Of a DNA stretch of 64,000 bases, positions 33,960 through 50,969 are shown in pieces (the stretch's first letter is position 1; every line of letters starts with the position of its first letter). The position numbers and the translations under genes were made by a program. Source of the DNA: Actinomycetota bacterium (GTDB lineage: Bacteria; Actinomycetota; Acidimicrobiia; Acidimicrobiales; Ilumatobacteraceae). The stretch covers positions 33,921 to 97,920 of the forward strand of contig VFZC01000007.1 of the NCBI GenBank assembly GCA_016871355.1, read 5' to 3'. The notes under the pieces are model-generated. The model did not search any database. It had not been told where the DNA came from and worked only from the letters and a program-made list of their open reading frames with translations.

Positions 33960-33996
33960 CTGCCAGCATCCCCTCCCCGATCGCTGTTTCGCTCAG

Positions 33997-34996: not shown

Positions 34997-36591
34997 TCGT
35001 CCGCCTGGCCGCCGCCCAATACGCCACCGGCTGCGACGTCGACGAGAACCTCGACACCGCATTGCGCATGATCGACGAAGCAGCGCGCGCCGAGCCGACC
35101 GTTCTCGTTCTCCCCGAATTCGGGAACCATCTCTCCATCTACGACTCGGCCGAACACTGTTGGGACGTCGCGATCGATCTCGATTCGGCCTGGACCCGAC
35201 GTATCGGCGCCGCAGCCGCGCGCCACGCGATGTGGATCCAGTTCAACTGCACGGTGCGTCGCGAAGCCGGACGCGTCACCAACACCAACCTCCTCATCGA
35301 TCCATCGGGTCGACTCACGGCGGCCAACGACAAGACCGTGCTCATGGGCGCCGAGGGCATCTATCTGTCACCGGCCGATCGACCGGCCGACGTCGTCGAC
35401 GCCGGCTTCGCTCGTCTGGGCACCTATGCGTGCATGGACGGTGTGGTCCCCGAGGTTCCGCGCACCCTGGCGGTCCGTGGCGCGAACGTTCTGCTGAATT
35501 CTCTCAATTCGTTCGCCCTCGACGAAGCATCCACGCACATTCCGGTGCGAGCGGCCGAGAACCGAGCGTGGTTGGTGGCCTGCTGCAAGATCGGCCCACT
35601 CTTGCCGCCCGATCGTCTGGCCGAGTTCGCCCAGAACATGGGCGTGCCCTCGGCGATGTTGCGTGGCGCCGGCGAGAGTCAGATCGTGCGACCCGACGGT
35701 GTGGTGGTCGCCCAAGGTCCTCGCGACGACGAAGCCGTCGTGGTGGCCGACGCCGACCTCTCGTTGTGCGGACAGCCGCGTCCCGACGGAACCGACGTGC
35801 GGCGCAATCGCCGACCCGCGGTCTACTCGGCCCTGGCGCAACCGACACCCGTGGCCGACGACCACCGCCGAGCCGATCGCCTTCAGGCGAGCGCCACGGC
35901 GAACGTTCACGAGGTCGCCTCACTCGTTCGCAACGGATCGACGCTCGTCGTGCTCCCCGAACTCGCGCTCGACGACGCGTCGATCGGAACGATCACGGCT
36001 GCTTTGGCGGATACCGACGCCATCGTCGTGTCGTCACGTCGACATTCGAGCCATGACGGCACCAGCCACTGCGGAGTGGCCATCAGTGCGAGTGGTGTCG
36101 TGTTGCATCAACGCCAGATACATCGCGTGGCACGACACGGGTGGGTCGACGTCCTCGGCGACTCCGTCGTCACGCTCGATACCTCATTCGGTCGCCTGGC
36201 CATCGTGGTCGGAGACGATGTTCTGTACCCCGAGATTCCACGCTTGGCCGCTCTGGCCGCCGTCGACGTGATCGCCGTGCCGTGGACATCGGGTGGCGAA
36301 CCGTGGGACGTCGAGCTGTGCCTCCCCGAGCGGGCCGCCGAGAACCGGGTGAACCTGGTGGCCGCCGGCCCCGAGAACGTCGTCGTCTCGTTGCCGGCCG
36401 ACTTCACTCTCTGGGCTCCGGAGCGTCGACGACCGTTCGACGGAACCATCAACTTGCCCGACATCGCACGCGCTCATCAGACCGTGACGGCCGAGATCCA
36501 TCCGGTTCGATCGCTGAATCGTCGCATCAGCCGCAACACCGATCTCGTCGACGGTCGACCCTGGCAGTTGTGTCAGTCGCTCACCGACTGA
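34993..36591 (+). CDS. tandem nitrilase-superfamily protein, second domain degenerate
   Basis: A 532-residue protein with two carbon-nitrogen hydrolase domains. Domain 1 (about 1-265) has the complete Glu-Lys-Cys triad: Glu42 (VLPEFGN), Lys114 (NDKTVLM) and Cys147 (YACMDGVVPE). Domain 2 (about 290-515) keeps Glu323 (VLPELALD). It has HQRQIHR where the Lys motif should be, and VVGDDVLYPE around residue 407 where the Cys should be, so it looks catalytically dead. Nitrilase-family enzymes hydrolyse amides, nitriles or carbamoyl groups. Fusion of an active and an inactive copy may rebuild the usual dimer in one chain. It is coupled to the HMG-CoA-lyase-like gene by a 4-bp overlap. Confidence 0.87.
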   Translation: MIVRLAAAQYATGCDVDENLDTALRMIDEAARAEPTVLVLPEFGNHLSIYDSAEHCWDVAIDLDSAWTRRIGAAAARHAMWIQFNCTVRREAGRVTNTNLLIDPSGRLTAANDKTVLMGAEGIYLSPADRPADVVDAGFARLGTYACMDGVVPEVPRTLAVRGANVLLNSLNSFALDEASTHIPVRAAENRAWLVACCKIGPLLPPDRLAEFAQNMGVPSAMLRGAGESQIVRPDGVVVAQGPRDDEAVVVADADLSLCGQPRPDGTDVRRNRRPAVYSALAQPTPVADDHRRADRLQASATANVHEVASLVRNGSTLVVLPELALDDASIGTITAALADTDAIVVSSRRHSSHDGTSHCGVAISASGVVLHQRQIHRVARHGWVDVLGDSVVTLDTSFGRLAIVVGDDVLYPEIPRLAALAAVDVIAVPWTSGGEPWDVELCLPERAAENRVNLVAAGPENVVVSLPADFTLWAPERRRPFDGTINLPDIARAHQTVTAEIHPVRSLNRRISRNTDLVDGRPWQLCQSLTD

Positions 36592-38684: not shown

Positions 38685-38699
38685 CGAAACGCTGTTCCG
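38685..38699. promoter_or_regulatory. IclR-type operator copy b, CGAAACGCTGTTCCG
   Basis: Matches CGGAAC-NNN-GTTCCG with one difference in the left arm. It lies 53 bp upstream of the neocarzinostatin-like gene, in the 109-bp gap after the membrane protein gene, so it probably controls the surface-protein/beta-propeller pair. Confidence 0.65.
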
Positions 38700-39417: not shown

Positions 39418-40224
39418 GTGTGGCGAAGTCTGCTGTACGTGCCGGCCGACCGGGCCGACCACTTCGTGCCCAAGGCCGAAGCGACGGCCGTGGATGCGAT
39501 CATCGTCGACCTCGAGGACGGTGTGGCTCCCGTGGCCAAGGAAGCGGCTCGTGCGCGCGTCGCCAACGTGATTCGTTCGATCGATCGGCCGGTGATCGTG
39601 CGCGTGAACAGCGGCGACGCGTTGGATTCCGACATCGAGGCCATCGCCCTGGCCAATCCGTCCGCCGTCATGCTCCCGAAGGCCACCGCTTTGTCGCTTG
39701 ACGACGCCGAGCGCAGTCTCGCTCGCCATCGCCTGCCGGTCCCCGTGATCGCACTCGTCGAATCGGCCCGTGGTCTGCTCGATCTCGAGGCGATGGCCCG
39801 TCACCGACGAGTGTCGCGCCTCGCGTTGGGTGAGGCCGATCTGCGCGCCGAACTCGGACTCGGCACACACGCCGACCATGCGCTCTGGCCGTTGCGCACG
39901 TCGGTCGTGGTGGCCTCGGCTGCTCACGGACTCGAACCGCCCATCGGTCCGGTCTCCACCGACTGGCGCGATCTCGACGACCTGCGCCGCACCAGCACCT
40001 TGCTCAGGAACGCCGGTTTCGGTGGCCGCTCGGCCATCCATCCCGATCAGGTGGACACCATCAACGACACGTTCCGCCCCAGTGCCGACGACGTGAAGGT
40101 CGCCGAACGGATCGTGGCGATCTTCGATGCCGCTCTGGCCGACGGTCGCGGCGTCGCGGTCGACGACGACGGTCGCATGATCGACGAAGCGGTCGTTCGA
40201 TCGGCTCGTCACGTTCTGTCCTGA
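39418..40224 (+). CDS. CitE/HpcH-type acyl-CoA lyase
   Basis: A 268-residue TIM-barrel lyase of the citrate lyase beta/malyl-CoA lyase family. The N-terminus WRSLLYVPADRADHFVPKAE, the DAIIVDLEDGVAP metal-site segment, VRVNSGD, ALVESARGLLDL and LALGEADLRAELG are all conserved. Family members cleave citryl-, malyl- or citramalyl-CoA. The start is GTG. It would supply a C-C cleavage for CoA-activated hydroxydiacids from the island. The 3' end overlaps the convergent hydrolase by 16 bp. Confidence 0.85.
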   Translation: MWRSLLYVPADRADHFVPKAEATAVDAIIVDLEDGVAPVAKEAARARVANVIRSIDRPVIVRVNSGDALDSDIEAIALANPSAVMLPKATALSLDDAERSLARHRLPVPVIALVESARGLLDLEAMARHRRVSRLALGEADLRAELGLGTHADHALWPLRTSVVVASAAHGLEPPIGPVSTDWRDLDDLRRTSTLLRNAGFGGRSAIHPDQVDTINDTFRPSADDVKVAERIVAIFDAALADGRGVAVDDDGRMIDEAVVRSARHVLS

Positions 40225-40856
40225 CTCGCGGCTCGCGCGATGAAATCGGCCACGGCAATCGGTGCGAGCAACGGTGCGTCGTGATGACTCGTGATCGTTT
40301 CGTACCCGCGCCCCTCGGCATCGAAGCGACGGCGACTGGCCACTGACGGAAAGAACTCCGGAGTCAGCGAGCAGAACGCGACGGAAAGGGGCACCCGCTC
40401 GTCCACCTCCACGGCGTCGAGACTCGGACCGAACGGAGTCGGCGACAACCGTTCGTTGACCCACGCCGCCAGTGACACGTCGAAACCGTTGGTCTCACCC
40501 ACGGGAGTGGCTGGAATGTCGGTCTCTCGTGGCGGTAACGACGGAGGCGGCGGCCCCGACACGTCGACCGCCCGCTGGCCACTCTCGATCACCGGGGCAT
40601 CGATCAGCACCACTCGCGACACCTGTGGCCAGCGTGCGGCGGCCCGCGCCACCACCCCACCCATCGAATGACCAACCACCACGTCGCCGGGATCGACGGC
40701 ACGAAGCACGTCGTCGACCCACTCGCTCATCGATGGTCGACCACCCCGCAGATCGATCGCCGCGGCGTTCACACCGCGCGACGACAGTTCGTGCACCACT
40801 CGATCCCACGCCCACGAACCGCGGAAGGCGCCGTGCACCAGAACGCACTTGCTCAT
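40209..40856 (-). CDS. alpha/beta hydrolase resembling plant methylesterases
   Basis: A 215-residue hydrolase. The N-terminus CVLVHGAFRGSWAWDRVVHEL closely follows the pattern of plant methylesterase/hydroxynitrile-lyase proteins (FVLVHG-x-x-GAWCW). The nucleophile is Ser64 in VVGHSMGGVV and the probable catalytic His is in TSHHDAP near residue 190. In plants one member (MES16) removes the methyl ester of fluorescent chlorophyll catabolites. Here the gene closes an operon containing a Rieske oxygenase and two RCCR-like proteins, so a similar demethylation is a natural guess (inference). It overlaps the ABM-fold gene by 4 bp. Confidence 0.82.
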   Translation of the reverse strand: MSKCVLVHGAFRGSWAWDRVVHELSSRGVNAAAIDLRGGRPSMSEWVDDVLRAVDPGDVVVGHSMGGVVARAAARWPQVSRVVLIDAPVIESGQRAVDVSGPPPPSLPPRETDIPATPVGETNGFDVSLAAWVNERLSPTPFGPSLDAVEVDERVPLSVAFCSLTPEFFPSVASRRRFDAEGRGYETITSHHDAPLLAPIAVADFIARAASQDRT

Positions 40857-41167
40857 CGATCGGTCGCGAGCAGCACGGAGAGGATCTCTTTCTGGGGATC
40901 ACGTGGTTCGATGTGTTCGCTCAGGCGCGCGATCCACGTCGCGTAATCAGGATGAGCAACCAGGTCGTCGTAGTCATCGACGCGATCGAAGAAGCGAATG
41001 TTCACGACATGGCGCGGATCGTCGTTCCCGTGCAGAAGGCGCCGTCCGCGGTAGCCGGCGATGGTCACGTGAATCGCCTCGAATTCGGCTGTGATGCGCG
41101 CATACGCGTCGGCTCGGGCCGCTGGGTCGTCGTCGAGCAACCAGGCGTGCGAGACGATCGCGATCAC
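40853..41167 (-). CDS. small dimeric alpha/beta-barrel (ABM-like) protein
   Basis: A 104-residue protein with the ferredoxin-like dimeric barrel pattern: VSHAWLLDDDPAARADAYARI, RRLLHGNDDPRHVVNIRFFDRVDDYDDLVAHPDY and a C-terminal EILSVLLATD strand. The family includes antibiotic-biosynthesis monooxygenases and haem-degrading IsdG/HmoA enzymes. The assignment is by fold pattern only. The GTG start overlaps the VOC gene stop (GTGA). A role on a tetrapyrrole-derived substrate would fit the operon. Confidence 0.6.
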   Translation of the reverse strand: MIAIVSHAWLLDDDPAARADAYARITAEFEAIHVTIAGYRGRRLLHGNDDPRHVVNIRFFDRVDDYDDLVAHPDYATWIARLSEHIEPRDPQKEILSVLLATDR

Positions 41168-41865
41168 GCCGCGATCTCGCTTCCGTCGGGTGCCGCCGCC
41201 CCGAACAGCAGCCCGGTCACCCCGGCGCCGCGAGACGTCGGTGACGCGACGTGACCCGGAAACGAAAGCAGTTCGAGTCGTGTCGATGCGCCGTCGTCGG
41301 ACGCCAGCGTGATCATGCGCAGAGGCGCATCGGCCACCGGCAGATCGAGATAGGCGCCGAGCGACGGATCGGCGAATTCGAGCGGTGGTCCGGCGGTGGC
41401 GCCGGCCGCGGTCCAGAGAGACGCCTCGACGTCGCGATCACGCACGCACCAGACCACGCTGTAGATCTCCGAGCACCAGTGCGATTCGGTGTCGAGGAGC
41501 GACGGACGGCGATGCGAACTCTCGACCATCACGACCGGCACACCGTCTGGTCCGGCCACCAGGACCTGGCGCATCCGAACCGGCCCGAGCGCGATCGCAC
41601 CGATCGCACCACCCGACCAACCGGCCACCTCGACGCGAGTCAGCGCCTCGTCGAGATCGTGAACGTACACGTCGAGGCCGCGTGGTCCGAGATCCCAACC
41701 TCGGCGCACGACACCCTGCGCATTCGAACGGGAGATGCGTACGGATGCTCCCGCCGAACGCGACAACACATCATCACCGCCGTCGACGTAACCGAACACC
41801 GCGAAGAAGTCGCGAGTGGCCGCCGGATCCGACGCCGCGACATCGATCCGGCGGATCGGCAGCAT
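41164..41865 (-). CDS. VOC (glyoxalase/dioxygenase) superfamily protein
   Basis: A 233-residue protein with two VOC-type beta-alpha-beta modules: IRRIDVAASDPAATRDFFAVFGYVDGG at the N-terminus, LDVYVHDLDEALTRVEVAGWSGG in the middle and IYSVVWCVRDRDVEASLWTAAGATAGP for the second half. Metal-ligand positions cannot be fixed by eye. VOC proteins include ring-cleaving dioxygenases, isomerases and binding proteins. The ATG at 41865 shares a base with the preceding stop (TGATG). Confidence 0.72.
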   Translation of the reverse strand: MLPIRRIDVAASDPAATRDFFAVFGYVDGGDDVLSRSAGASVRISRSNAQGVVRRGWDLGPRGLDVYVHDLDEALTRVEVAGWSGGAIGAIALGPVRMRQVLVAGPDGVPVVMVESSHRRPSLLDTESHWCSEIYSVVWCVRDRDVEASLWTAAGATAGPPLEFADPSLGAYLDLPVADAPLRMITLASDDGASTRLELLSFPGHVASPTSRGAGVTGLLFGAAAPDGSEIAA

Positions 41866-42797
41866 CAGTCCCCTTGCCAGGCGAGTGCGCCGTAGAGCAT
41901 GTAGCGCATCCGGTCGCTCTCGATCCACTTCCAGCAGGCCGACATCGACAACTTGTCGTCGTACAGGAACTCACGACCTTGGATCTTGGTGGCCTCACCG
42001 AAGATGTGCTGAGCCGTGTACAAGGCCCGACCGTACGCGCGACCGTTGCCGTAGAGACCAGGCCCGTCGAAGGTGTGCAGGTTTCCGTCGTGATACCGAT
42101 CGAACGTGTACTGCTTGTTGATCAGGCCCGAGAGCTTCACGGTCTGGCGCGCCCGCAAGAGGCTGGTGGGCTCGTGACGGATGGAGATGTTCACTTCGCC
42201 GACCGGCTGCTGATCGGAACCGTACGCGCGCATGGTTCCGGACCAGGTGCCACTCTGCTTGGGCGGAAGGGTGTGCGGCATGCGACCGGCCTGGGCCTCG
42301 GCATCGCAGAAGGCGTCGATGCGCTGGCGCGTCGCCGCGTTCGTCTCGTAGTCGAACGCAACCTTGTACACGCCGTTCATGACCGCGACGATCGTCTGGC
42401 CTTCGAACAACAGCGACGAGTACACCTGCGTCTCGCCGTCGTCGAGGATGTGCACCATGGTGCGCAGGTCGGCCTGCCACGCCGGCGAGTAGTAGTTGGC
42501 GTCCACCAACATCCCGTACGGATGACCCGCCCCCACGAAGTCGGGACCGAGATAGATGCGATCACGGTCGCTGTCGAGCAGTTCGAACGCGAACTCGCTG
42601 AATTCCATGCGATTGCGCAACGGGCCGTCGTTGTCGAACTTGGTGTGCATGTAATAAATGGTCTTGTCGCCCTCTTTGCGCGACGACCGTGACACCTTGA
42701 TCCAGCCGGTGTGGTTACCGTTCGGATCCCAGACCGACGGACGGCCGTACCACTCACCTTCGATGGTCTGCTGCCACTTGCTCGTATCGTTCGACAT
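41865..42797 (-). CDS. two-domain calycin-like protein (DUF3598-like)
   Basis: A 310-residue protein of beta-rich lipocalin-like character: QQTIEGEWYGRPSVWDPNG at the start, YYMHTKFDNDGPLRNRMEFSEF, QVYSSLLFEGQTIVAVMNG, then a second barrel-like half from about residue 180 (SGTWSGTMRAYGSDQQPVGE to the end). The style resembles DUF3598 proteins of cyanobacteria and plastids and, more loosely, bilin-lyase calycins. No catalytic motif is visible. Lying between an RCCR-like gene and a VOC gene, it may carry a hydrophobic tetrapyrrole product (speculative). A GAGGGGA site precedes the ATG. Confidence 0.6.
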   Translation of the reverse strand: MSNDTSKWQQTIEGEWYGRPSVWDPNGNHTGWIKVSRSSRKEGDKTIYYMHTKFDNDGPLRNRMEFSEFAFELLDSDRDRIYLGPDFVGAGHPYGMLVDANYYSPAWQADLRTMVHILDDGETQVYSSLLFEGQTIVAVMNGVYKVAFDYETNAATRQRIDAFCDAEAQAGRMPHTLPPKQSGTWSGTMRAYGSDQQPVGEVNISIRHEPTSLLRARQTVKLSGLINKQYTFDRYHDGNLHTFDGPGLYGNGRAYGRALYTAQHIFGEATKIQGREFLYDDKLSMSACWKWIESDRMRYMLYGALAWQGD

Positions 42798-42812
42798 GTC
42801 CCCTCGCTTGTG

Positions 42813-43562
42813 TCACTTCGCTGGCGTCGCCAGCTTCGATCTGAGAACTTCGGCCTTCTCGGCCCCGATCAACTGGCCGACGCGACCCCACACCGGATCG
42901 ACCGTCGGATCGAACACGATGGCTCGGTTACGGCGATCACGATCGGCGATCTGATCGGGACCCACGCCGTCGAGAACGTCGTTCGGGACACCGCTCGTCA
43001 CGAGCGACAACCAGTGGTCGCGATACGCGGTCACCGCGGTCTCCACACTGCGGAACGCCGATTCGTCGGCCCGGTGCACGACCATCCACGCCGACATCAC
43101 CGCGTACTGCGTCGGACTCAGATGCGCCGGCTCGAGTCCGGCGATGGTCTGGGCCTCGGCACGAATGGCGGTGAGCGGTTCGAAACAGTGGCGTAGGTAA
43201 CCGAGGTGTGCACCGAGATCGAGTTTCGGAATGAGATCGAGGTGGAAGGCGAACGCCGCCTGCGCACCCGGTTGGCCGCCACCCGCCACTGAATCGATCG
43301 TGAAGTGCGGAACCGCCGACGTGACCGGCGAGAACGCGAACATCATGTGGCTGTCGAGGCCGATGGGTGGAACCGACAACCCGATGTAGACGAGATCGAC
43401 CGCTCCGGTCCACCAACGCATCCGACCCACCGGAGCGTCCGGCATCATCGGACTGGTGAGCACGTGCAAGGCGTCCGGTGCCTCGCCCGCGGTCTCCACC
43501 AATCCGAGACGATCGACGATCGTCTCGACCGAACGCCAACACAGATCGAACGACACGCTCAC
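42813..43562 (-). CDS. RCCR/bilin-reductase-like protein 2
   Basis: A 249-residue protein that I read as a distant member of the red chlorophyll catabolite reductase/ferredoxin-dependent bilin reductase fold. VPHFTID (Asp90) aligns with the plant PNFVVE segment that holds a catalytic Glu. FHLDLIPKLDLGAHLGYL (107-123) aligns with LILDLPHRKDLVLNPDYL of Arabidopsis RCCR. LSPTQYAVMSAWMVVHRA aligns with VSPSLFVRSAFSPTA. RDRRNRAIVFDPTVDP recalls the late RRD segment. It would reduce an open-chain tetrapyrrole with ferredoxin electrons. The GTG start overlaps the Rieske stop as GTGA. The alignment is by eye only. Confidence 0.6.
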   Translation of the reverse strand: MSVSFDLCWRSVETIVDRLGLVETAGEAPDALHVLTSPMMPDAPVGRMRWWTGAVDLVYIGLSVPPIGLDSHMMFAFSPVTSAVPHFTIDSVAGGGQPGAQAAFAFHLDLIPKLDLGAHLGYLRHCFEPLTAIRAEAQTIAGLEPAHLSPTQYAVMSAWMVVHRADESAFRSVETAVTAYRDHWLSLVTSGVPNDVLDGVGPDQIADRDRRNRAIVFDPTVDPVWGRVGQLIGAEKAEVLRSKLATPAK

Positions 43563-44749
43563 GCGCGCTCGACCTCTCGTCGTTCGCGCAAGGCTTCCTT
43601 CGCTTCGAGTTCCTTGAGCACCCACGCGTTGGCCAATTCGGGATTGGCGCGGCGCGCCGGTGACGGCACCACCTTGGCGCCTTCGTAACGACCCGTGCCC
43701 ACGACGTGCTCGTCGATCAGCCAACCGCGATCGATGTTGCCTTGACGCCAACGGCGATACGCCAACTGAACGGCGTCACTCTTCACCTGCAGTTCGGCCG
43801 ACAGATCGAACGGCACCAATTCGGGGCGCTGGCCCTCGACGGTGGCTCGATCTTCGTAGAAGATCTTCATGGTGCGCTTGTACGAGTCCTTGTCGGCGCG
43901 CAGCAACGTGATGGCCCACGGCTGTGTGAAGAATGTCCGCATCATCGTCCACTTCGAGATCGAGTGGTTCTCGTCGACCGGCACCACGGCCGTGAAGATG
44001 GTCATCACACCGATCGGCAGGTTCACCTGCAAGAAGGTGATGTTGGGGAAGAACACGCCGTTTCCGGTGGCAACCGGTGGGCGCTCCTTGCCGCGACGCA
44101 GAACCTTCCAGATGCCCTTGGGATCGGGCGGTTCGAGATGCACCACGTACGTGGCACCCATCAGATGGTCGCCGACTCGGTGTTCCACGAGATCGAAGTC
44201 CTCGATCTCGGGCTTGTTCGGGTTACCGAAACTGGTGGAGTGCACGAACGGTGCGTGGGCGGCATCGGCGCCGTTCTCGATCACTCGCTCGTAGTTGGCG
44301 TTCCAGGCGAACTCGCCTTGCACGATCCGATTGCCTTCGGCACGGGCCTCACACGTGTCGGCCATCCCAGGTAGTTCGGCCAGCGGCGGCCGCTCGTTCT
44401 CGGGAAGGTCGCCGAAGAACACGAACACGTACCCGTACTTCTCGACACACGGGTAGTTGTCGACGCGGGCCTTCTTCGGAATCGGAGATCCCGCCTTGTT
44501 GGCGGGGATCTTCACACAGGCGCCATCGGTGTCGAACTGCCAACCGTGGTACGGGCACTCGACGCAATCGCCCACGACCTTGCCGCCGGCCAGCGACGCA
44601 CCACGATGGATGCAGATGTCGCTGTGGCACACGATCTCGCCTTTGGTGTTGCGGTACAGGACGAGATCCTGTCCGAACAACCGCACCTGATGCGGCTTCG
44701 AGCCGATCACGTGACCGAACTCGACTGCATACCACTGGTTCTTGATCAT
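43559..44749 (-). CDS. Rieske mononuclear iron oxygenase, pheophorbide-oxygenase-like
   Basis: A 396-residue oxygenase component. The Rieske cluster ligands are Cys46-x-His48 and Cys65-x2-His68 (CIHRG, CPYHGW). The mononuclear iron site has Asp162-x2-His165-x4-His170 (ADAAHAPFVH). Segments such as GACVKIPANKAGSPIPKKARVDNYP and KYGYVFVFFGDLPENERPP are typical of the group containing plant PaO, TIC55 and cyanobacterial relatives. In plants PaO opens the chlorin ring of pheophorbide a. No C-terminal membrane anchor or CxxC is seen, so it is soluble and not a close PaO orthologue. Lying between two RCCR-like genes, it is likely to supply their substrate (inference). AAGGAG precedes the ATG. Confidence 0.85.
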   Translation of the reverse strand: MIKNQWYAVEFGHVIGSKPHQVRLFGQDLVLYRNTKGEIVCHSDICIHRGASLAGGKVVGDCVECPYHGWQFDTDGACVKIPANKAGSPIPKKARVDNYPCVEKYGYVFVFFGDLPENERPPLAELPGMADTCEARAEGNRIVQGEFAWNANYERVIENGADAAHAPFVHSTSFGNPNKPEIEDFDLVEHRVGDHLMGATYVVHLEPPDPKGIWKVLRRGKERPPVATGNGVFFPNITFLQVNLPIGVMTIFTAVVPVDENHSISKWTMMRTFFTQPWAITLLRADKDSYKRTMKIFYEDRATVEGQRPELVPFDLSAELQVKSDAVQLAYRRWRQGNIDRGWLIDEHVVGTGRYEGAKVVPSPARRANPELANAWVLKELEAKEALRERREVERA

Positions 44750-44761
44750 GATGTCTCCTTG

Positions 44762-45595
44762 TCAGCCGATCCGGGCTTTCGAACCGTCGGGTCTCGCGAT
44801 CCGGCGATCGCCGCCCCACAACGCGCGCACGAGGCGCTCGGTCATCTCCTCACCGAAGAAGCGCACACCGATCACGTTGGCCGGATCGCGGTCGGCCACC
44901 GTGCGGCGAACGAGAAGATCGCGCTCGGCCAACGAACGTCGTTCGGCCGTCGGCACCGGATCGCCCGTCTTCAGATGGTCGAGCCAGGCATCGACGCGAC
45001 CTTGCGCCAACCTCAGCATCTTGTCGACCGCGTCGTCGGTGCGTTTGACGACACAGCACAACGCGGTGTTCGACACCGCTTGCCGGACGTAGAGCGTCTG
45101 ACTGACGAACGGCGAGAAGTTGGGGTCTTCGCGAATGGCCATGAACTCGGCGTTGTGCGGCTCGTAGTACCGATCGAGGTAATCGGGTCGGGCCAGCAGA
45201 TCGACTCGGGGCACGTAGTCGACGAAGTACCAATAGTCGGGAATCGTTCCGACCGCGATTCCGAGATGCGGCACGTACGTGTGCGGCCCGAGGTACGCGG
45301 TGAGGTGCAAGTTGGTGAAGCCGATCGACGGATTGCCGATCCAGGAATGGATCATCCAGTCGACCTCGGGTCCGACGAACGCGTTGAGGCTGCCTTTCGG
45401 CCCGCCCTCCACTCCGTACGCGGCGAACTCGTTGGTGGACGGATCGGGTTCGACCGGCAGCACCGCGGTGATCTGATCGAACATCTTCTGCAGTCCGGCC
45501 TGCAATACTCCGAACTCGCGCGTGACGTCGAGCGGTCCCGCTTCGTCGTGGATGTCGACGATCGACTTCGTCGTCTCCGTGGCCCCTCCGGACAT
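44762..45595 (-). CDS. red chlorophyll catabolite reductase-like protein 1
   Basis: A 277-residue protein with clear by-eye similarity to plant RCCR across its C-terminal two thirds: MIHSWIGNPS (81-90) to GSWIHCKIPT; VDYVPRVDLLARPDYLDRYY (125-144) to LDLPHRKDLVLNPDYLKEYY; FSPFVSQTLYVRQAVSNTA (160-178) to NPYVSPSLFVRSAFSPTA; ERDLLVRR...VRFFGEEMTERLVRAL (224-259) to RRD...FPRMFGEEVSSRVVHAI. The plant sequence is quoted from memory. In plants the enzyme reduces red chlorophyll catabolite to a fluorescent phyllobilin. At the site of the plant catalytic Glu this protein has Ala (PHLGIA). It heads the operon, 20 bp from a perfect 25-bp palindrome, with a strong GGGGAGGGGA site. Confidence 0.78.
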   Translation of the reverse strand: MSGGATETTKSIVDIHDEAGPLDVTREFGVLQAGLQKMFDQITAVLPVEPDPSTNEFAAYGVEGGPKGSLNAFVGPEVDWMIHSWIGNPSIGFTNLHLTAYLGPHTYVPHLGIAVGTIPDYWYFVDYVPRVDLLARPDYLDRYYEPHNAEFMAIREDPNFSPFVSQTLYVRQAVSNTALCCVVKRTDDAVDKMLRLAQGRVDAWLDHLKTGDPVPTAERRSLAERDLLVRRTVADRDPANVIGVRFFGEEMTERLVRALWGGDRRIARPDGSKARIG

Positions 45596-45615: not shown

Positions 45616-45640
45616 GTTTGCGGAACGCCGTTCCGCAAAC
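45616..45640. promoter_or_regulatory. IclR-type operator copy c, perfect 25-bp palindrome
   Basis: The core CGGAACGCCGTTCCG (45621-45635) is extended by GTTTG on one side and CAAAC on the other, giving perfect 11-bp arms around a 3-bp spacer. It lies between the end of the LLM oxidoreductase gene and the start of the RCCR-like gene, 20 bp before that ATG, so it probably overlaps the promoter of the RCCR-Rieske operon. Confidence 0.75.
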
Positions 45641-45644: not shown

Positions 45645-46658
45645 TTAGCCCACGATCAGGCCGCACTCCCTCAACGCCGGTGCGACGGCGGCCGGTCCGT
45701 TCGGATCAGCCGCATGCGCCGGCAACATGAACGACAATCCGTCGAGGCCCGACCCCCCGCAGAGACCACCGAGGCGATCGGCCACTTCGGCGTGGGTGCC
45801 AACGATCATGCGCGCAGTGAGCCCGGCCCGAAAGCCCGGATCGTCGAGTTGAGCCGGATCCATACCGCGTCCGGCGACCATGCGACGCAACAAGTCGTCC
45901 ACCTCTTTCTCGGTCGGAGCGGTCACCAACGATGCCAGCAGTGTGACGTTGATCGAATCTCGTGACCGACCCGCGTCGTCGAGCGCGCGTTCGAGCACGG
46001 CCATCTTGTGCGGCACTTCGTCGACCGTGCAGTTGAAGTTGATCGCATCGGCGACTCGCGCCGCCAGCGGAATGGTCTTGCGCTCACCCGATCCTCCGAT
46101 GACGATCGGCGGACCACCCGCGCGCAGCGGCGCGGGAACGTTCACGAGACTCTCGGTGCGGAAGTGGCGACCCGACACGGTGGTCTCGGCCTGGGTGAAC
46201 ATTCCGCGCAGAATTTGCACACCCTCGTCCAGCATTTCGAAGCGCTGCGAGACGGACGGAAACTCGAAGCCGAAGGCTCGGTGTTCTTCTTCGTACCAAG
46301 CCGCACCGATTCCGCAGATGGCCCGACCGCGCGACACGACATCGAGGGTCGTGATCATCTTCCCGAGCATGGCCGGGTTGCGGTAGGTCACCCCGGTGAC
46401 GAGGGTTCCGAGATTCACGCGCTGGGTTCGTGCCGCCAGAGCCGACAAGAGCATGTAGCCCTCCAGCATCGGTTGACGCGAACCGCCCAGGAAGATGAGT
46501 TGGTAGAAGTGATCCATCACGAAGACCGTGTCGAATCCGGCTTTCTCGGCCGACTGCGTGTAGCTCGAGACGTGCTCGAAGAGGCCGTCGTCGGGCACTC
46601 CCAGGCCGTGGAAGGTGGGCATTTGCAGCGCCGCGCGAACCAAGGTGCGATTCGTCAT
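45645..46658 (-). CDS. LLM-class flavin/F420-dependent oxidoreductase
   Basis: A 337-residue luciferase-like monooxygenase-fold protein. HVSSYTQSAEKAGFDTVFVMDHF near residue 30, RTQRVNLGTLVTGVTYRNPAMLGK near residue 80 and the GRAICGIGAAWYEEEHRAFGFEFPS motif near residue 115 are typical of F420-dependent members in Actinobacteria. It would perform a hydride-transfer reduction or an oxygenation. It is the last gene of operon E. Its ATG overlaps the preceding stop (ATGA) and its own TAA lies beside the 25-bp palindrome of the next operon. Confidence 0.83.
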   Translation of the reverse strand: MTNRTLVRAALQMPTFHGLGVPDDGLFEHVSSYTQSAEKAGFDTVFVMDHFYQLIFLGGSRQPMLEGYMLLSALAARTQRVNLGTLVTGVTYRNPAMLGKMITTLDVVSRGRAICGIGAAWYEEEHRAFGFEFPSVSQRFEMLDEGVQILRGMFTQAETTVSGRHFRTESLVNVPAPLRAGGPPIVIGGSGERKTIPLAARVADAINFNCTVDEVPHKMAVLERALDDAGRSRDSINVTLLASLVTAPTEKEVDDLLRRMVAGRGMDPAQLDDPGFRAGLTARMIVGTHAEVADRLGGLCGGSGLDGLSFMLPAHAADPNGPAAVAPALRECGLIVG

Positions 46659-47239
46659 GACAATCCCTTCGTGTAGTCGTTCACGGTGACCACATCGGCC
46701 ACACCCGACAGGCTGACCAGAGTCGCGTCGTGAACCTGGGGGTCGAACGCCGCACATCCGTCGGAGAGCAACCGAACGTGGAAACCACGGGCGTGAGCGT
46801 CACGTACCGTCGAGGCCACCCCACCATTGGTCACGATGCCCGCCACGGTCACGTGATCGACGTCCCATTGGCGCAGCAACCATTCGAGGCGAGTGTGCAA
46901 GAACGCGGAGTAGGCGACCTTCTCCACCACGGAATCGGTTGGTTGCAGTTCATCGACCACCGAATGCCCCCACGAACCAGCGGCGAAATCTCCGCGACGC
47001 AGGAACGGACGCAGTGAACGCAGATGTTCGGCAACCATCGGATCGCCGTGTCGATCGGGCACGAGTGTGAAACAGGTGGCGATCACGGGAACGCCGTGGC
47101 GACGCGCGGCCGCCACCGTGGGCGCCAGACGAGCGGGAAGAGCTCGCGCGGCTTCGCTCACCGCTCCCCCTCGCGCGTACGCGCCGTCGGGATGCAGGAA
47201 GTCGTTCTGCAGATCGACGAGAAGCAAGGCCGACGTCAT
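46655..47239 (-). CDS. isochorismatase-family protein lacking the nucleophilic Cys
   Basis: A 194-residue cysteine-hydrolase-fold protein. Asp9 (LLLVDLQNDF) and Lys107 (VVEKVAYSAF) of the catalytic triad are present. The position usually held by Cys reads VTNGGVAST, with Gly140. It is therefore either a true isochorismatase-like enzyme using activated water or an inactive or binding subunit. It differs from the paralogue at 30097-30726, which keeps Cys. It overlaps hyuA by 4 bp and would act directly after the HyuA/HyuB ring opening. Confidence 0.78.
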   Translation of the reverse strand: MTSALLLVDLQNDFLHPDGAYARGGAVSEAARALPARLAPTVAAARRHGVPVIATCFTLVPDRHGDPMVAEHLRSLRPFLRRGDFAAGSWGHSVVDELQPTDSVVEKVAYSAFLHTRLEWLLRQWDVDHVTVAGIVTNGGVASTVRDAHARGFHVRLLSDGCAAFDPQVHDATLVSLSGVADVVTVNDYTKGLS

Positions 47240-49275
47240 GACGCACGCACCACGTCGAGGTTGCCGTACTGGTCGACCGTGGCCCGGAAGCCCGGCTCGA
47301 TGAGCGTCGTCGCGTCGGGCTGTTCGAGAACGCACGGTCCGACCACGGTTGCGCCGATCGGGAGTTGCAATCGGCTCCACACGTCGGCGTCGTGCCACTG
47401 CCCACCCACATACACGGGGCGACGGCCCAGACGCGCGGCTTCGACGGAGGTGGTTCCACTCACCAGACGGGCCAGATCGAACTCGGGTCGTCGACCGATC
47501 ACACTGGTGCGAACACCGAGGACGCGAACGGCCACGCCGTTCAGCAGTCGTCCGAACTGCGCGCGGTAAGCGCTTTCGAAGGCGGTCGTGATCACGGACG
47601 AATCGAGTCGAGCTGGGTCGTCGATGGGAAGAGGAACCGCGACGGCGTGGGTCTGGCCCACGTACGACATGTCGAAGGCCATCTCGACGTCCACTCCGTC
47701 GAACACCACACCCGACGACTCGATGGCACGACGTGATTCGTCGATCGATGCTCGCATCGATTCGCGAACGGCCTCGATGTCGAGTGAAGCAAGAGGTGAC
47801 TGCCACGTGCGGACCGAGTCGTAACGCATGTCGGCCAACACGCAACCGAGAGCCGAGATCACCCCGGGGAGGCGCGGTACGAGCGCTCCGGCCAAACCGA
47901 GGTCGCGCACGAACGCGCAGGTGTGCAGCGCACCCGCTCCACCGAACGGCACCATCCAGAACTTGGACGGATCGTGGCCGCGCTCGATCGACACGATGCG
48001 CAGAGCTCCCGACATACGAGTCTCGGCAACCGTGACGATGGCTTCGGCGGCGTCCTCGATCGACAATCCGAGCGGGCGACCCACGTGTTCGTCGATCGCG
48101 CGCCGGGCCGCCGCCACGTCGAGAGCCGCGCGCCCACCGATGGGACGCTCGGCGTTGATTCGACCGAGAACCACGTTGGCGTCAGTGACCGTGGGCCGAT
48201 CGTTCCCCATGCCGTAACACACCGGTCCGGGCACGCCACCGGCTGATTCGGGGCCGATCTGCAACAGACCACCCCGATCGACCCAGGCGATCGACCCGCC
48301 GCCGGCCCCGATCGTGCTCATTTCAATCATCGGAGTACGCACCACCAGACCGAAATCGATGGTGGTCTGCGCGGCTTGAACGGAACGCCCGTCGACGACG
48401 ACGGCGACGTCGAAACTCGTACCTCCCATGTCACCGGTCAGGACATTGGGATGCCCGGCCGCCACCGCGATCCGACTGGCCGCGATGACGCCCGCGGCCG
48501 GACCCGACAACGCGGTACGGACCGGCACCGCTCGTGCGCGTTCGACGGTCATCACACCGCCGTTCGACTGCACCACGAGGAATCGACCCGAGAATCCGTT
48601 CTCGGCCAAACCCTTCTCGAGTTGTTCGAGATAGTCGCCGACGACCGGCTGCAAGTAGGCGTTCAGAGTGGTGGTGGACGTGCGCTCGAATTCGCGGATC
48701 TCGGGCAAGATCTCACTGCTCACCGAAACGTGCGCGTTGGGCCACGACTCACGTACGACTCGCGCCGCCACCTGCTCGTTGCTCGGATCGGCGTACGAAT
48801 GAAGGAAGCAGATCGCGATCGACCGCGCACCGCGCTCGAGCAGTTCGTGAGCGACCCGTCGCACTTCGTCGGCATCGATCGGTTCGATCACGGTTCCGTC
48901 GGCCAGAGTTCGCTCGGCCACTTCGGCCCGCATGTCGCGTTCGACCACTGGGCGGAAGTCTCCCCAGAGCCCCCACGTACGCGGCCGATCACGACGACGC
49001 ATCTCCAGCACGTCGGCGAAACCGGCCGTGGTGAGCACGGCCGTGCGTGCACCCTTGCGCTCAAGAAGGGCGTTGGTTCCGACGGTCGTTCCGTGGATGA
49101 TGGCGTTCACGTCACCGAGCGGCCGCTCCCCCGTCACACTGCGAACTCCGTGCAGGAAGCCTTCCGATTCGTTGGTGCGGGTGGACGTGACCTTGCCCAC
49201 CGACACCTCACCCGACGATTCGTCGAGTGCGAACACGTCGGTGAACGTTCCGCCGACGTCGATTCCGATGATCAC
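47236..49275 (-). CDS. hyuA: hydantoinase/oxoprolinase A-type subunit
   Basis: A 679-residue protein of the HyuA family, which belongs to the actin/Hsp70-like ATPase fold. The phosphate-binding N-terminus is IGIDVGGTFTDVFALDE, and TGDMGGTSFDVAVV near residue 280 is also typical. With HyuB it forms an ATP-dependent complex that opens lactam or imide rings (5-oxoproline, N-methylhydantoin) or, in relatives, carboxylates ketones. The GTG start overlaps the hyuB stop as GTGA. The substrate is not determined by sequence. The neighbours (cyclase, cysteine hydrolase) fit hydrolysis of a cyclic amide. Confidence 0.9.
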   Translation of the reverse strand: MIIGIDVGGTFTDVFALDESSGEVSVGKVTSTRTNESEGFLHGVRSVTGERPLGDVNAIIHGTTVGTNALLERKGARTAVLTTAGFADVLEMRRRDRPRTWGLWGDFRPVVERDMRAEVAERTLADGTVIEPIDADEVRRVAHELLERGARSIAICFLHSYADPSNEQVAARVVRESWPNAHVSVSSEILPEIREFERTSTTTLNAYLQPVVGDYLEQLEKGLAENGFSGRFLVVQSNGGVMTVERARAVPVRTALSGPAAGVIAASRIAVAAGHPNVLTGDMGGTSFDVAVVVDGRSVQAAQTTIDFGLVVRTPMIEMSTIGAGGGSIAWVDRGGLLQIGPESAGGVPGPVCYGMGNDRPTVTDANVVLGRINAERPIGGRAALDVAAARRAIDEHVGRPLGLSIEDAAEAIVTVAETRMSGALRIVSIERGHDPSKFWMVPFGGAGALHTCAFVRDLGLAGALVPRLPGVISALGCVLADMRYDSVRTWQSPLASLDIEAVRESMRASIDESRRAIESSGVVFDGVDVEMAFDMSYVGQTHAVAVPLPIDDPARLDSSVITTAFESAYRAQFGRLLNGVAVRVLGVRTSVIGRRPEFDLARLVSGTTSVEAARLGRRPVYVGGQWHDADVWSRLQLPIGATVVGPCVLEQPDATTLIEPGFRATVDQYGNLDVVRAS

Positions 49276-50969
49276 GAATCGCCTCGCGTGACGTACCCGA
49301 GACGACGATCGCGCTCGATGGCCGCGGGGTCGCGATCACTGGACGGGCCGTACCCGCCACCACCGGGCGATTCGATGCGTACGCGATCGCCACGCGTCAT
49401 CTTGACTCCGAGAACCTTCGCCCCCAGTTCGGGTTCGATCACGTCGTCGGCCACCACGAAACTCACCTCGTTGGTGGCAGCGGCTCCACCACCGGCGACC
49501 CCCAACGGCGGTCGCCACGCTCGATCGCCGAACGTGAAGGCCTCGGCCGATTCGGCCAACAACTCGATGTCGTACGACGCACCGAGCCCGCCACGGAACT
49601 TGCCGTCACCACCCGAGTCGGGTCGCAGCGACCAACGACGGAACCGAACCGGATACTGCGCTTCGAGAATCTCGACCGGAGGAATCGTGGCCGTGGACAA
49701 CGGAGCGTTGCCGTGATTGAGACCGTCGGAGACGGGCGAGCCACCCAGCCCGCCGCCGTAGAACGTGAACATCACCCAGGGCGAGCCGTCGGCGCGCTGA
49801 CCCGCGAGTGACAACGCGTTGATGGTTCCGTAACTGCACCCGTTCGACGCGGTGGGGTCGGCCTCGGCGACACATCGGAAGATCAGATCCATCACCCGCA
49901 GGATCGTCTCGGTGTAACCGCCCACCGGTCGGGGGCGCGTGGCCGCCAGCAGACTGCCGGCCGGAATCACGATGTCGACGGGCTCGAGGCAACCAAAGTT
50001 CGCCGGCACGTCACGGAAGACGTGCTTGAGTCCGACGTAGCACGCGGCGACCGCGGTGGAGTGAGAGATGTTGATCGGTCCGGTGACAGCACCCGACGTG
50101 CCGCTGAAATCGAGCCGCAGACGATCTCCTTCGACCGTCATCGTGAGCGCAACTTCCACCAGATCGGCCGACGATCCGTCGTTGTCGAGATAGTCGACGG
50201 CGCGGTACACACCGTCGGGCAACTTGTCGATACTCGATCGCATGAGCGTCGCGGCGCGACGGGTGAGTTCGTCGAGGGCTTCGTGAACCACGTCGTCGCC
50301 GTACTCGTCGAGGAGTTCGCCCAAGCGACGCGCCCCGAGATCGAGTGCGTTCAACTGCGCCTGCATGTCGCCGTAGGCATTGACCGGTTGTCGCGAGATC
50401 GAGCACACCAGGTCGACCACTCGCTCGTCGGTCTCACCGGCGCGACGAATGAGCACCGGCGGAATGAGAGTTCCTTCTTGTTGGATGTCTCGCGCGGCCG
50501 GGTTGTAGTTGCCCGGCACGTTGCCGCCCACGTCGGTGAAGTGACCGACCGATGCCAAGTGACACCAGATCCGACCGTCCCGGAAGAACGGACGAATCAT
50601 CTTCAGGTCGTTGAGATGAGTACCGCCCTCGTAGGGGTCGTTGAAGCAGTACACGTCACCATCACGCACCGCGCCCGACTCGACCGCACCGTCGACGTCG
50701 GCCCGTCCCCCACGACGTTCACTGTCGGCCGACATCGTCGCGATGGCCAGACGCACCGCACCGGCCATCGAACCGACGAACACCGGGAGACCATTCGATC
50801 CCTGCGCGAGCGTCGCTCCGGTGTGCGCGTGATAGATCCCGTGCGACGCGTCGTGCGCCTCGGCGATGATCGGATTGAACGCCGAGCGGAACAACGTTGC
50901 GTCCATCTCGTCAGCGATCTGCTCGAGGCGACCGTTGATGACCGCCAGCAGAACGGGATCGAGGCTCAC
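49272..50969 (-). CDS. hyuB: hydantoinase/oxoprolinase B-type subunit
   Basis: A 565-residue HyuB-family protein. The N-terminus INGRLEQIADEMDATLFRSAFNPIIAEAHDAS, then YCFNDPYEGGTHLNDLKMIRPFF and SVGHFTDVGG (likely metal-binding His/Asp), SFYG-like VMFTFYGGGLG and the C-terminal PGGGGYG are all typical. It is the catalytic partner of HyuA. Its GTG start overlaps the MmgE/PrpD stop, and its stop overlaps hyuA, so the two subunits are made together. Confidence 0.9.
   Translation of the reverse strand: MSLDPVLLAVINGRLEQIADEMDATLFRSAFNPIIAEAHDASHGIYHAHTGATLAQGSNGLPVFVGSMAGAVRLAIATMSADSERRGGRADVDGAVESGAVRDGDVYCFNDPYEGGTHLNDLKMIRPFFRDGRIWCHLASVGHFTDVGGNVPGNYNPAARDIQQEGTLIPPVLIRRAGETDERVVDLVCSISRQPVNAYGDMQAQLNALDLGARRLGELLDEYGDDVVHEALDELTRRAATLMRSSIDKLPDGVYRAVDYLDNDGSSADLVEVALTMTVEGDRLRLDFSGTSGAVTGPINISHSTAVAACYVGLKHVFRDVPANFGCLEPVDIVIPAGSLLAATRPRPVGGYTETILRVMDLIFRCVAEADPTASNGCSYGTINALSLAGQRADGSPWVMFTFYGGGLGGSPVSDGLNHGNAPLSTATIPPVEILEAQYPVRFRRWSLRPDSGGDGKFRGGLGASYDIELLAESAEAFTFGDRAWRPPLGVAGGGAAATNEVSFVVADDVIEPELGAKVLGVKMTRGDRVRIESPGGGGYGPSSDRDPAAIERDRRLGYVTRGDS

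What the first reader, a model, noticed from the sequence alone, without database searches (positions are those of the whole stretch)
40209..45595. Bacterial operon pairing a Rieske oxygenase with two plant-RCCR-like reductases and a methylesterase-like hydrolase
Seen: RCCR-like 1, Rieske oxygenase, RCCR-like 2, calycin-like protein, VOC, ABM-fold and a hydrolase with the plant-methylesterase N-terminus are encoded in one direction with mostly 1-4 bp overlaps. Known: plants open pheophorbide a with a Rieske enzyme (PaO), reduce the product with RCCR, and demethylate it with a methylesterase (MES16). Inference: this is a bacterial route for opening and reducing a chlorophyll-like or other tetrapyrrole macrocycle. 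I do not know of such an operon being described.
Basis: partly seen in the sequence, partly recalled or inferred. Interest (0 to 1): 0.95.

Follow-up and report, generated by a model that had tools for sequence, protein, structure and literature searches.

The report
Bacterial operon for dismantling chlorophyll-like pigments
Bacteria of several phyla carry a conserved block of genes in which two relatives of a plant chlorophyll-breakdown enzyme accompany an oxygenase unlike the plant one, and the block is predicted to take apart chlorophyll-like pigments as food.

Summary
RCCR1 (44762-45595) passes the RCC-reductase family cut-off; RCCR2 (42813-43562) is a divergent member shown only by profile comparison. 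Between them lies a Rieske oxygenase. They sit in a 14-gene operon (40209-54374). In 74 of the 80 named loci most similar to RCCR1, RCCR1, Rieske, RCCR2 and a two-domain beta protein occur together (Actinomycetota, Chloroflexota, a record labelled Deltaproteobacteria). An esterase-like hydrolase (66 of 80) and a nitrilase-type protein (68 of 80) are also linked and absent from 40 arbitrarily placed 20-kb control stretches. In the window, operator-like palindromes lie in five gaps between genes, among them those before RCCR1 and before the cupin/hydrolase/ABC-transporter unit.

The plant analogy is partly right: the Rieske protein is not PaO (VanA_C domain in 20 of 20, PaO domain in none), RCCR1 lacks one acid of plant RCCR, and the methylesterase-like hydrolase is not core (5 of 80).

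Best reading: genes predicted to oxidise and reduce a tetrapyrrole, likely chlorophyll-derived (heme oxygenase not found in 23 of 34 cluster genomes), and then to break its pyrrole units into central metabolites. Substrate and reactions are untested. Ten open full-text searches listed no description of this operon.

The parts
44762..45595 (-). RCCR1: RCC_reductase family protein
   Evidence: PF06405 5.6e-20; plant RCCR structures 7.7e-13; invariant Asp237, Ala114 at the FDBR Asp-99 position
43559..44749 (-). Rieske non-heme iron oxygenase, VanA_C class
   Evidence: PF00355 2.7e-23, PF19112 3.2e-25; C46/H48/C65/H68 and D162/H165/H170 invariant in 20; clade of its own
42813..43562 (-). RCCR2: divergent RCCR/bilin-reductase superfamily protein
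   Evidence: hhalign to RCCR1 E 1e-13; PDB profile search gives only plant RCCR, E about 0.1; A1 profile finds Chloroflexota RCCR2; AF2 pLDDT 91.4
41865..42797 (-). CALY: all-beta (calycin-like) protein in two halves, possible tetrapyrrole carrier
   Evidence: AF2 pLDDT 91.8; no Pfam/PDB match; linked in 74 of 80 loci
41164..41865 (-).
   Evidence: frame and junctions; no Pfam match (longer start 41928); 9 of 80 loci
40853..41167 (-). ABM-fold-like small protein (found in few relatives)
   Evidence: PF03992 E 0.086, below cut-off; 3 of 80 loci
   Evidence: PF12697 7.2e-14; 5 of 80 loci
45645..46658 (-). luciferase-like monooxygenase
   Evidence: PF00296 1.4e-45 (longer start 46757); not enriched beside RCCR1 (3 of 80 against 3 of 40 controls)
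46655..47239 (-). isochorismatase-family amidase
   Evidence: PF00857 6.1e-39 (frame 46655-47251)
47236..49275 (-). HyuA, hydantoinase/oxoprolinase A
   Evidence: PF01968 6.6e-89; 7 of 80 loci
49272..50969 (-). HyuB, hydantoinase/oxoprolinase B
   Evidence: PF02538 6.5e-160; 7 of 80 loci
50966..52378 (-). MmgE/PrpD family (de)hydratase
   Evidence: PF03972 1.9e-54; 21 of 80 loci
52375..53196 (-). putative cyclase/amidase (PF04199)
   Evidence: PF04199 9.6e-24 (frame 52375-53655); 19 of 80 loci
53193..54374 (-). CoA-transferase family III, first gene of the 14-gene operon
   Evidence: PF02515 1.8e-113 (frame 53193-54392)
54468..55271 (+). IclR-type regulator, divergent
   Evidence: PF01614 5e-41; 36 of 80 loci
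55315..56208 (+). cupin (DUF4437)
   Evidence: PF14499 2.4e-40
56515..57513 (+). CHLASE: esterase-like alpha/beta hydrolase (distantly like DLH, PETase and chlorophyllase); in actinomycetes it lies between RCCR1 and Rieske
   Evidence: A4: GHSAGG with S207, and D265, H308 invariant in 16; family matches; 66 of 80 loci
57510..63438 (+). branched-chain-type ABC importer (binding protein, two long ATPase/permease proteins)
   Evidence: PF13458, PF02653 1.5e-57 and PF00005
39418..40224 (+). HpcH/HpaI-type C-C lyase
   Evidence: PF03328 8e-27; nearest NCBIfam RipC itaconate-degradation C-C lyase 142 bits, below cut-off 375
34993..36591 (+). NITR: long nitrilase/amidase-type protein
   Evidence: NCBIfam nitrilase NF040852 6.7e-31, below its cut-off (frame from 34864); orthologue in L027 PF00795 5.2e-42; 68 of 80 loci
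34061..34996 (+). HMGL-like C-C lyase
   Evidence: PF00682 1.8e-36
32769..33959 (-). second CoA-transferase III
   Evidence: PF02515 2.2e-129
31999..32769 (-). AMDASE: maleate isomerase/arylmalonate decarboxylase superfamily, catalytic Cys absent
   Evidence: PF17645 1.2e-21; PDB maleate isomerase 3.5e-14 with other residues at both Cys sites
30737..31999 (-). FAD-dependent monooxygenase
   Evidence: PF01494 4.2e-58 (frame to 32524); 38 of 80 loci
30097..30726 (-). isochorismatase-family amidase (N-carbamoylsarcosine amidohydrolase-like)
   Evidence: PF00857 4.6e-41; PDB 26st 1.6e-46
28823..30094 (-). acyl-CoA dehydrogenase-fold flavin enzyme
   Evidence: PF02771/PF02770/PF08028; 31 of 80 loci
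26804..28249 (-). aldehyde dehydrogenase
   Evidence: PF00171 6.5e-93
25989..26771 (-). second AMDASE paralogue
   Evidence: PF17645 1.8e-17; PDB maleate isomerase 1.8e-9
45621..45635 (.). operator-like palindrome CGGAAC-N3-GTTCCG in the 49-bp gap before RCCR1
   Evidence: similar sites before RCCR1 in relatives
55272..55286 (.). same palindrome between IclR and the cupin/CHLASE/ABC unit
   Evidence: exact match
54411..54427 (.). one-mismatch site between CoA-transferase and IclR genes
38685..38699 (.). one-mismatch site upstream of gene 37990-38631
33986..34002 (.). one-mismatch site between second CoA-transferase and HMGL genes

Best explanation
This 14-gene operon and its apparently co-regulated neighbours likely encode a pathway that oxidises, reduces and then dismantles a tetrapyrrole, probably one derived from chlorophyll. 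Shown by calls: the gene set, its family assignments, its conservation in other phyla and the shared palindromes. Inferred, step by step: the ABC importer would take up the pigment or its fragments; the CHLASE hydrolase would remove an ester group; the Rieske oxygenase would open the macrocycle or hydroxylate it; RCCR1 and RCCR2 would make successive ferredoxin-type reductions of the linear product, RCCR2 carrying the Asp that corresponds to the first FDBR catalytic acid and RCCR1 the second; the two-domain beta protein would hold the reactive linear tetrapyrrole. The FAD monooxygenase and other flavin enzymes would then cut it into pyrrole units, the nitrilase-, isochorismatase- and hydantoinase-type enzymes would open lactam or imide rings and release ammonia, and CoA-transferases, hydratases and C-C lyases would feed branched dicarboxylates to central metabolism. 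An IclR-type regulator probably controls the set.
For: RCCR1 and RCCR2 family evidence. All four core genes in 74 of 80 named loci, same strand in 73 of 74; CHLASE, NITR, SDR and AMDASE are each also present in 43 of 43 loci of cultured actinomycetes. At 100 bits, Rieske 77, RCCR2 76, CALY 74, NITR 68, CHLASE 66, AMDASE 46, FADMO 38 of 80, each 0 of 40 in control stretches. RCCR1 and CALY in the same 3 of 247 genomes of the class, RCCR2 in those and one more. Distances between core proteins correlate, r 0.82-0.93 over 73 loci. A second arrangement in three Chloroflexota genomes, NITR-RCCR1-FADMO-ALDH, ties the ring-attacking enzymes to RCCR independently. C-C lyases of three families (HpcH 30, PEP-mutase/ICL 19, HMGL 20 of 80; any 52 of 80 against 1 of 40) suggest one kind of reaction filled by different folds. 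Five of six palindromes lie in the 2.3% of the window outside called genes. PF01126 heme oxygenase found in 11 of 34 cluster genomes, not in the window's own, so most would need an outside substrate.
Against: No substrate is shown. The Rieske protein is outside the PaO family, and its nearest rows in the tree include a VanA-like one, on long branches. RCCR1 has Ala in 30 of 30 where plant RCCR has Glu. No Mg-dechelatase SGR in 34 cluster genomes; in 251 Chloroflexota genomes SGR (3) and RCCR1 (3) never share a genome. The AMDASE proteins lack both cysteines of maleate isomerase. The window's own CHLASE has no chlorophyllase match at E<=1. Luciferase-like, isochorismatase, HyuA/B, ABM and hydrolase genes of the window are not significantly enriched in relatives, nor are aconitase-type hydratases (2 of 80 against 1 of 40). 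AMDASE and FADMO lie within the fetched flanks in only 2 of 29 acidimicrobial-type loci. No ferredoxin or Rieske reductase was sought. The palindrome is not clearly enriched in the cultured actinomycetes.
Confidence: 0.55

Rival explanations
1. The operon acts on bilins or phycobilins (linear from the start, from heme or cyanobacterial antennae), not on a chlorophyll macrocycle; the Rieske enzyme only hydroxylates or cleaves a side group or a bridge.
For: The superfamily's best-known members are bilin reductases and the RCCR1 profile also hits GtPEBB (3.4e-9). The Rieske protein is not PaO. Heme oxygenase exists in 11 of 34 cluster genomes.
Against: PF01126 heme oxygenase not found in 23 of 34, the window's genome included (several are MAGs that may be incomplete, the window's is 86% complete; other heme-degrading families were not searched). 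Among solved proteins the RCCR1 profile scores plant RCCR (2.1e-18) far above any FDBR. An esterase-like hydrolase is linked in 66 of 80.
Confidence: 0.25
2. A biosynthetic cluster for a tetrapyrrole-derived or unrelated secondary metabolite in actinobacteria.
For: Present in Streptomyces, Micromonospora, Nocardia and other metabolite-rich genera; a flavin reductase lies next to an acyl-CoA-dehydrogenase-fold enzyme in L027.
Against: Found also in acidimicrobial genomes of about 2-4 Mb and in Chloroflexota; no NRPS/PKS domain among the cluster proteins scanned, apart from a sub-family KR match of an ordinary SDR; importer, CoA-transferases, C-C lyases and amidases look catabolic.
Confidence: 0.1
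3. The island degrades a different N-heterocycle (purine, hydantoin/creatinine or nicotinate type), and the RCCR-like proteins have been recruited to that substrate.
For: Rieske nearest to NdmA among solved proteins, with HpxD among plasmid matches; isochorismatase nearest to N-carbamoylsarcosine amidohydrolase; HyuA/HyuB in the operon; FAD monooxygenase, amidase and maleate-isomerase-like genes resemble a nicotinate lower pathway (recalled).
Against: HyuA/B in only 7 of 80 loci; no RCCR/FDBR member is known to me to act on a single-ring compound (recalled); RCCR2 accompanies RCCR1 in 76 of 80 loci.
Confidence: 0.1

Closest known systems
Plant PaO/phyllobilin pathway (PaO, RCCR, MES16; pathway recalled)
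   Same: Rieske oxygenase plus RCC-reductase family protein(s), hydrolases in the set; RCCR1 passes the RCC_reductase cut-off
   Different: Rieske enzyme of VanA_C class, not PaO; two RCCR proteins with differing catalytic acids; linked ring-catabolism genes; no SGR found
Ferredoxin-dependent bilin reductases and bacterial pre-PcyA clusters (PMC10151467, passages read)
   Same: Same superfamily; in heterotrophic bacteria; A1 profile hits GtPEBB and, not significantly, HY2 and PebA
   Different: Pre-1/pre-3 clusters are described with heme oxygenase, V4R, Fe-S and globin genes; Rieske has 0 occurrences in that paper's main text
Cyanobacterial RCCR homologues of Nostoc/Anabaena (PMC2716323, passages read)
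   Same: RCC_reductase family; two neighbouring copies also seen here in two Nostocales loci (L064, L070)
   Different: No Rieske, RCCR2 or CALY in the fetched stretch (it ends 1.0 and 2.8 kb downstream)
VanA_C Rieske oxygenases (NdmA, HpxD, SxtT)
   Same: Domain architecture; NdmA and SxtT among the closest solved relatives
   Different: Own clade (100/99) of 20 cluster rows plus three rows that are the window's own gene or close copies of it from its genus, in a 53-row tree

Membership tests
RCC reductase (PF06405) | score over Pfam cut-off, RCCR1 | tested here: met
   72.1 bits against 24.9
RCC reductase (PF06405) | score over Pfam cut-off, RCCR2 | tested here: not met
   no hit at E<=1; homology only by profile
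RCC reductase (PF06405) | acid pair of plant RCCR (Glu154/Asp291, numbers recalled) | tested here: not met
   RCCR1 has Ala114 in 30 of 30 at the Glu site; Asp237 invariant near the Asp site, register uncertain by one residue. RCCR2 has Asp90 in 30 of 30 at the first site and an invariant Asp222 possibly at the second
Ferredoxin-dependent bilin reductase | Asp pair (Asp-99/Asp-219 of GtPEBB, PMC6755814, passages read) | tested here: inconclusive
   second Asp kept in RCCR1, first Asp kept in RCCR2; no single protein shown to hold both
Ferredoxin-dependent bilin reductase | ferredoxin-dependent reduction of a linear tetrapyrrole | not testable with these tools
   needs assay
Pheophorbide a oxygenase | PaO C-terminal domain PF08417 | tested here: not met
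   0 of 20 members at E<=1, VanA_C in 20 of 20
Pheophorbide a oxygenase | groups with PaO in a tree | tested here: not met
   separate from eight PaO-family rows of two Nostocales genomes; several reference rows are long-branched, no plant PaO was available
Rieske non-heme iron oxygenase | Rieske CxH/CxxH and 2-His-carboxylate residues | tested here: met
   C46, H48, C65, H68, D162, H165, H170 invariant in 20
Chlorophyllase (PF07224) | score over Pfam cut-off (26 bits) | tested here: not met
   window protein: no match at E<=1. Relatives: 10 of 16 match at E<=1; of those listed in full only L060 passes, 27.2 bits, where DLH scores higher, 33.6
Methylesterase MES16 | MES family membership and demethylation | not tested
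   only Abhydrolase_6 shown
Maleate isomerase | two catalytic cysteines (sites recalled) | tested here: not met
   31999-32769: Met and Gly at the two aligned sites; 25989-26771: Gly at the second and the same MGMSAETFW stretch at the first

The most novel reading that the evidence does not exclude
A complete, previously undescribed bacterial pathway that consumes chlorophyll: de-esterifying hydrolase, a non-PaO ring-opening Rieske oxygenase, a split pair of RCC reductases and a beta-barrel carrier, followed by enzymes that cut the phyllobilin to pyrrole units and on to central metabolism, all in one regulon; the RCC reductase of land plants would then have bacterial roots in such operons.
Probability: 0.28. 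Interest if true: 0.93.

Novelty: new variant of a known kind. Interest (0 to 1): 0.82.

Why it matters
Chlorophyll is made and destroyed in huge amounts each year, yet bacterial genes that would mineralise its tetrapyrrole are not known to me, and the rows listed by ten open full-text searches described no such operon. A conserved cluster in cultured Streptomyces, Micromonospora and Nocardia makes the question directly testable. It also bears on where plant RCCR came from: the 2009 survey (PMC2716323, passages read) knew homologues outside plants only in plant-symbiotic cyanobacteria and called their source problematical.

Tried and rejected
PaO membership of the Rieske protein: rejected. Nicotinate-type maleate isomerase step: weakened, catalytic Cys absent. 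Coupling to SGR: not found (the SGR model does ring in 3 of 251 Chloroflexota, so it works). Placing plant RCCR in the bacterial tree: unresolved, support 47/86 and long branches. RCCR1 on plasmids: no match. First control set (35 loci, 125 kb) was far shorter than the test set, so I replaced it by 40 stretches of 20 kb at coordinates I chose: 28 from six genomes of the window's order or nearer, 11 from two Chloroflexota genomes, one from a Nocardia genome. At least four of these genomes hold the cluster or its genes elsewhere, and test genera such as Streptomyces and Micromonospora have no control. All-against-all BLAST timed out, the reduced run over-merged families, and the first gene caller chose antisense frames; results from these were not used. 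The 80 loci are the best 80 of 177 confirmed matches; the other 97 were not examined. The palindrome was defined from the site before RCCR1, so that site is not independent evidence.


Full report
What is in the sequence. The minus strand from 54374 down to 40209 carries 14 genes: CoA-transferase III, PF04199 cyclase, MmgE/PrpD, HyuB, HyuA, isochorismatase, luciferase-like monooxygenase, RCCR1, Rieske, RCCR2, CALY, a VOC-like protein, an ABM-like protein and an alpha/beta hydrolase. Ten of the 13 junctions overlap by 1-4 bp; the others are gaps of 49, 15 and 12 bp. A divergent IclR gene follows, then a plus-strand unit of cupin, a small gene, the CHLASE hydrolase and a branched-chain-type ABC importer to 63438. 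To the left, 25989-36591 holds a second block: two AMDASE paralogues, aldehyde dehydrogenase, a protein without match, an acyl-CoA-dehydrogenase-fold enzyme, isochorismatase, FAD monooxygenase, CoA-transferase III, an HMGL-like lyase and a long nitrilase-type protein.

RCCR1 and RCCR2. RCCR1 passes the RCC_reductase cut-off and aligns over residues 64-259 of 277 with a plant RCCR chain, 3agb. A profile of 30 relatives hits plant RCCR at 2.1e-18, GtPEBB at 3.4e-9 and, not significantly, HY2 (0.035) and PebA (0.13). RCCR2 has no Pfam match, but three lines agree: hhalign to RCCR1 at 98.1% probability, E 1e-13; only plant RCCR among PDB matches up to E 10, at E about 0.1, not significant alone; and the RCCR1 profile finds the RCCR2 of two Chloroflexota genomes at 1.9e-13 and 9.3e-15. 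Its model is confident (pLDDT 91.4), strands flanked by helices; no fold comparison was possible. [quoted passage not shown] RCCR2 has Asp90 at the first site in 30 of 30, and an invariant Asp222 that may fill the second after a short insertion. Over the fetched loci (80 plus the window's own) a pattern at the first site of RCCR1 gives Ala in 78, Val in 2 and no match in 1 of 81; that of RCCR2 gives Asp in 76 of 76 scoring over 200 bits. That the two proteins divide the work of the acid pair is my inference.

The Rieske protein. Twenty cluster members all carry Rieske and VanA_C domains and none matches the PaO domain at E<=1. In a 53-row tree they form one clade (100/99) with three rows that are the window's own gene or its close copies, apart from eight PaO-family proteins of two Nostocales genomes and from VanA_C proteins of the window's relatives. 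The nearest rows are three plasmid Rieske proteins, one of them next to a PDR/VanB-type reductase gene (95/91); the program flags this as a meeting of long branches, so the sister group is open. Iron-binding residues are invariant. By sequence the nearest solved proteins are NdmA and SxtDIOX/SxtT, and plasmid matches include HpxD. This fails the PaO analogy as membership, but does not exclude ring opening.

Conservation. The scan of named genomes returned the best 80 of 177 RCCR1 loci. Rieske is present in 77, RCCR2 in 76, CALY in 74; all four in 74, on one strand in 73 of these. Of the six misses, L031 ends 1.3 kb and L042 3.4 kb downstream, L064 and L070 are Nostocales with two RCCR genes, L040 has CHLASE but none of the three, L033 lacks CALY. 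In 43 of 43 cultured-actinomycete loci CHLASE, NITR, SDR and AMDASE are present too; CHLASE lies between RCCR1 and Rieske in L027, L061 and L062 and some 6-7 kb downstream in acidimicrobial loci. Forty control stretches of 20 kb hold no hit over 100 bits to the core genes, CHLASE, NITR, AMDASE or FADMO. Among 247 genomes of the class, RCCR1 and CALY occur in the same three; RCCR2 in these and one more. Distances between the four proteins correlate at r 0.82-0.93 over 73 loci, Mantel p 0.001, as expected if they travel together. Not significantly enriched against the controls: luciferase-like, isochorismatase, HyuA, HyuB, ABM, hydrolase and aconitase-type genes (p values uncorrected).

A second arrangement. 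In three Chloroflexota genomes an RCCR1 relative sits in NITR-RCCR1-FADMO-ALDH, while in one of them CHLASE-Rieske-RCCR2-CALY-SDR-HMGL-aconitase-type pair-CoA-transferase lies elsewhere without RCCR1. The same partners recur in a different order, which argues for one pathway. Lineages differ in their C-C lyases (HpcH, PEP-mutase/ICL, HMGL); at least one is present in 52 of 80 loci against 1 of 40 controls. MmgE/PrpD (21 of 80 against 0 of 40) or, in Chloroflexota, an aconitase-type pair (2 of 80 against 1 of 40, not enriched) could serve as hydratase. I read this as an endgame on branched dicarboxylates, such as would come from alkyl-maleimides of the pyrrole rings; that is inference. Against a simple maleate route, the AMDASE proteins lack the maleate isomerase cysteines.

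CHLASE. The family keeps GHSAGG and candidate triad residues in 16 of 16. It is an alpha/beta hydrolase distantly like DLH, PETase and chlorophyllase; one relative (L060) passes the chlorophyllase cut-off, where DLH scores higher, and the window's own copy has no chlorophyllase match at E<=1. A de-esterifying role is inferred.

Regulation. The 49-bp gap before RCCR1 holds a perfect palindrome with 12-bp arms. Its core CGGAAC-N3-GTTCCG occurs twice exactly in the window, at 45621 and at 55272, just before the cupin/CHLASE/ABC unit; 100 shuffles average 0.02 and none reaches 2. With one mismatch, and with the related spacing GTTCCG-N5-CGGAAC, there are six sites; five lie outside called genes, which leave 2.3% of the window: between the second CoA-transferase and HMGL, upstream of 37990-38631, before RCCR1, between CoA-transferase and IclR, and before the cupin gene; the sixth is inside HyuB. 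The one-mismatch N5 form alone is not significant (2 found; 12 of 100 shuffles reach 2). In 29 loci, mostly acidimicrobial, there are 79 such sites in 543 kb (overlapping forms counted apart), 68 outside called genes, against 8 in 800 kb of controls; the 43 actinomycete loci have 14 in 869 kb. Sites stand before RCCR1, before the separate CHLASE unit (L007, L013, L020, L026 and others) and before the nitrilase of L033. The linked IclR protein is the likely reader, untested.

Which tetrapyrrole. PF01126 heme oxygenase is found in 11 of 34 cluster genomes and not in the window's own, which is 86% complete; other heme-degrading families were not searched. No SGR in the same 34. A pigment taken from outside, its metal already lost, fits. 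Bilins remain possible.

Literature. Ten searches of open PMC full text listed no paper describing an RCCR-Rieske operon in bacteria; listings were capped (for example 40 of 276) and subscription papers are not covered. Passages read: PMC10151467 (RCCR as outgroup; no mention of Rieske), PMC2716323 (RCCR homologues outside plants in Nostoc and Anabaena, side by side in N. punctiforme), PMC6755814, PMC10060970 (a Streptomyces heme/bilin paper; its 'Rieske' protein lacks the motif).

Verdict. The cluster is real and conserved, and shows signs of common regulation. That it acts on a tetrapyrrole is supported by family membership; that the tetrapyrrole is chlorophyll-derived and fully consumed is a testable proposal.

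Noticed in passing
window 33986, 38685, 45621, 54411, 55272: Operator-like palindromes in five gaps between genes of the island; likely operator of the linked IclR-type regulator, half-sites GTTCCG.
   Followed up: partly
window 37990-38631 and 38741-39391: A putative secreted alanine-rich protein and a putative membrane protein sit inside the island; similar-looking proteins were seen by eye beside the Nocardia cluster L045 (gene list). No family match over cut-off.
   Followed up: no
window 28246-28821: Protein without Pfam match, with relatives in only 2 of 80 loci (L033, L062); may be another beta-rich carrier.
   Followed up: no
L061:330-1100 and relatives: A second conserved protein without Pfam match (CALYb) before RCCR1 in Chloroflexota loci and within the fetched stretch in 22 of 80 loci.
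   Followed up: no
L134, L135, L136: Second RCCR1-type operon NITR-RCCR1-FADMO-ALDH in Chloroflexota, with a long-branched RCCR1 paralogue.
   Followed up: partly
window 31999-32769 and 25989-26771: Two maleate-isomerase-superfamily proteins without the catalytic cysteines, with relatives beside RCCR1 in 46 of 80 loci; their reaction is unknown.
   Followed up: partly
window 22949-23039: ARAGORN calls a tRNA-Thr that overlaps the called protein gene 22152-23039 on the other strand; possibly a false call.
   Followed up: no
window 24441-24870: Short tandem repeats with 12-, 33- and 93-base periods next to the left border of the island.
   Followed up: no
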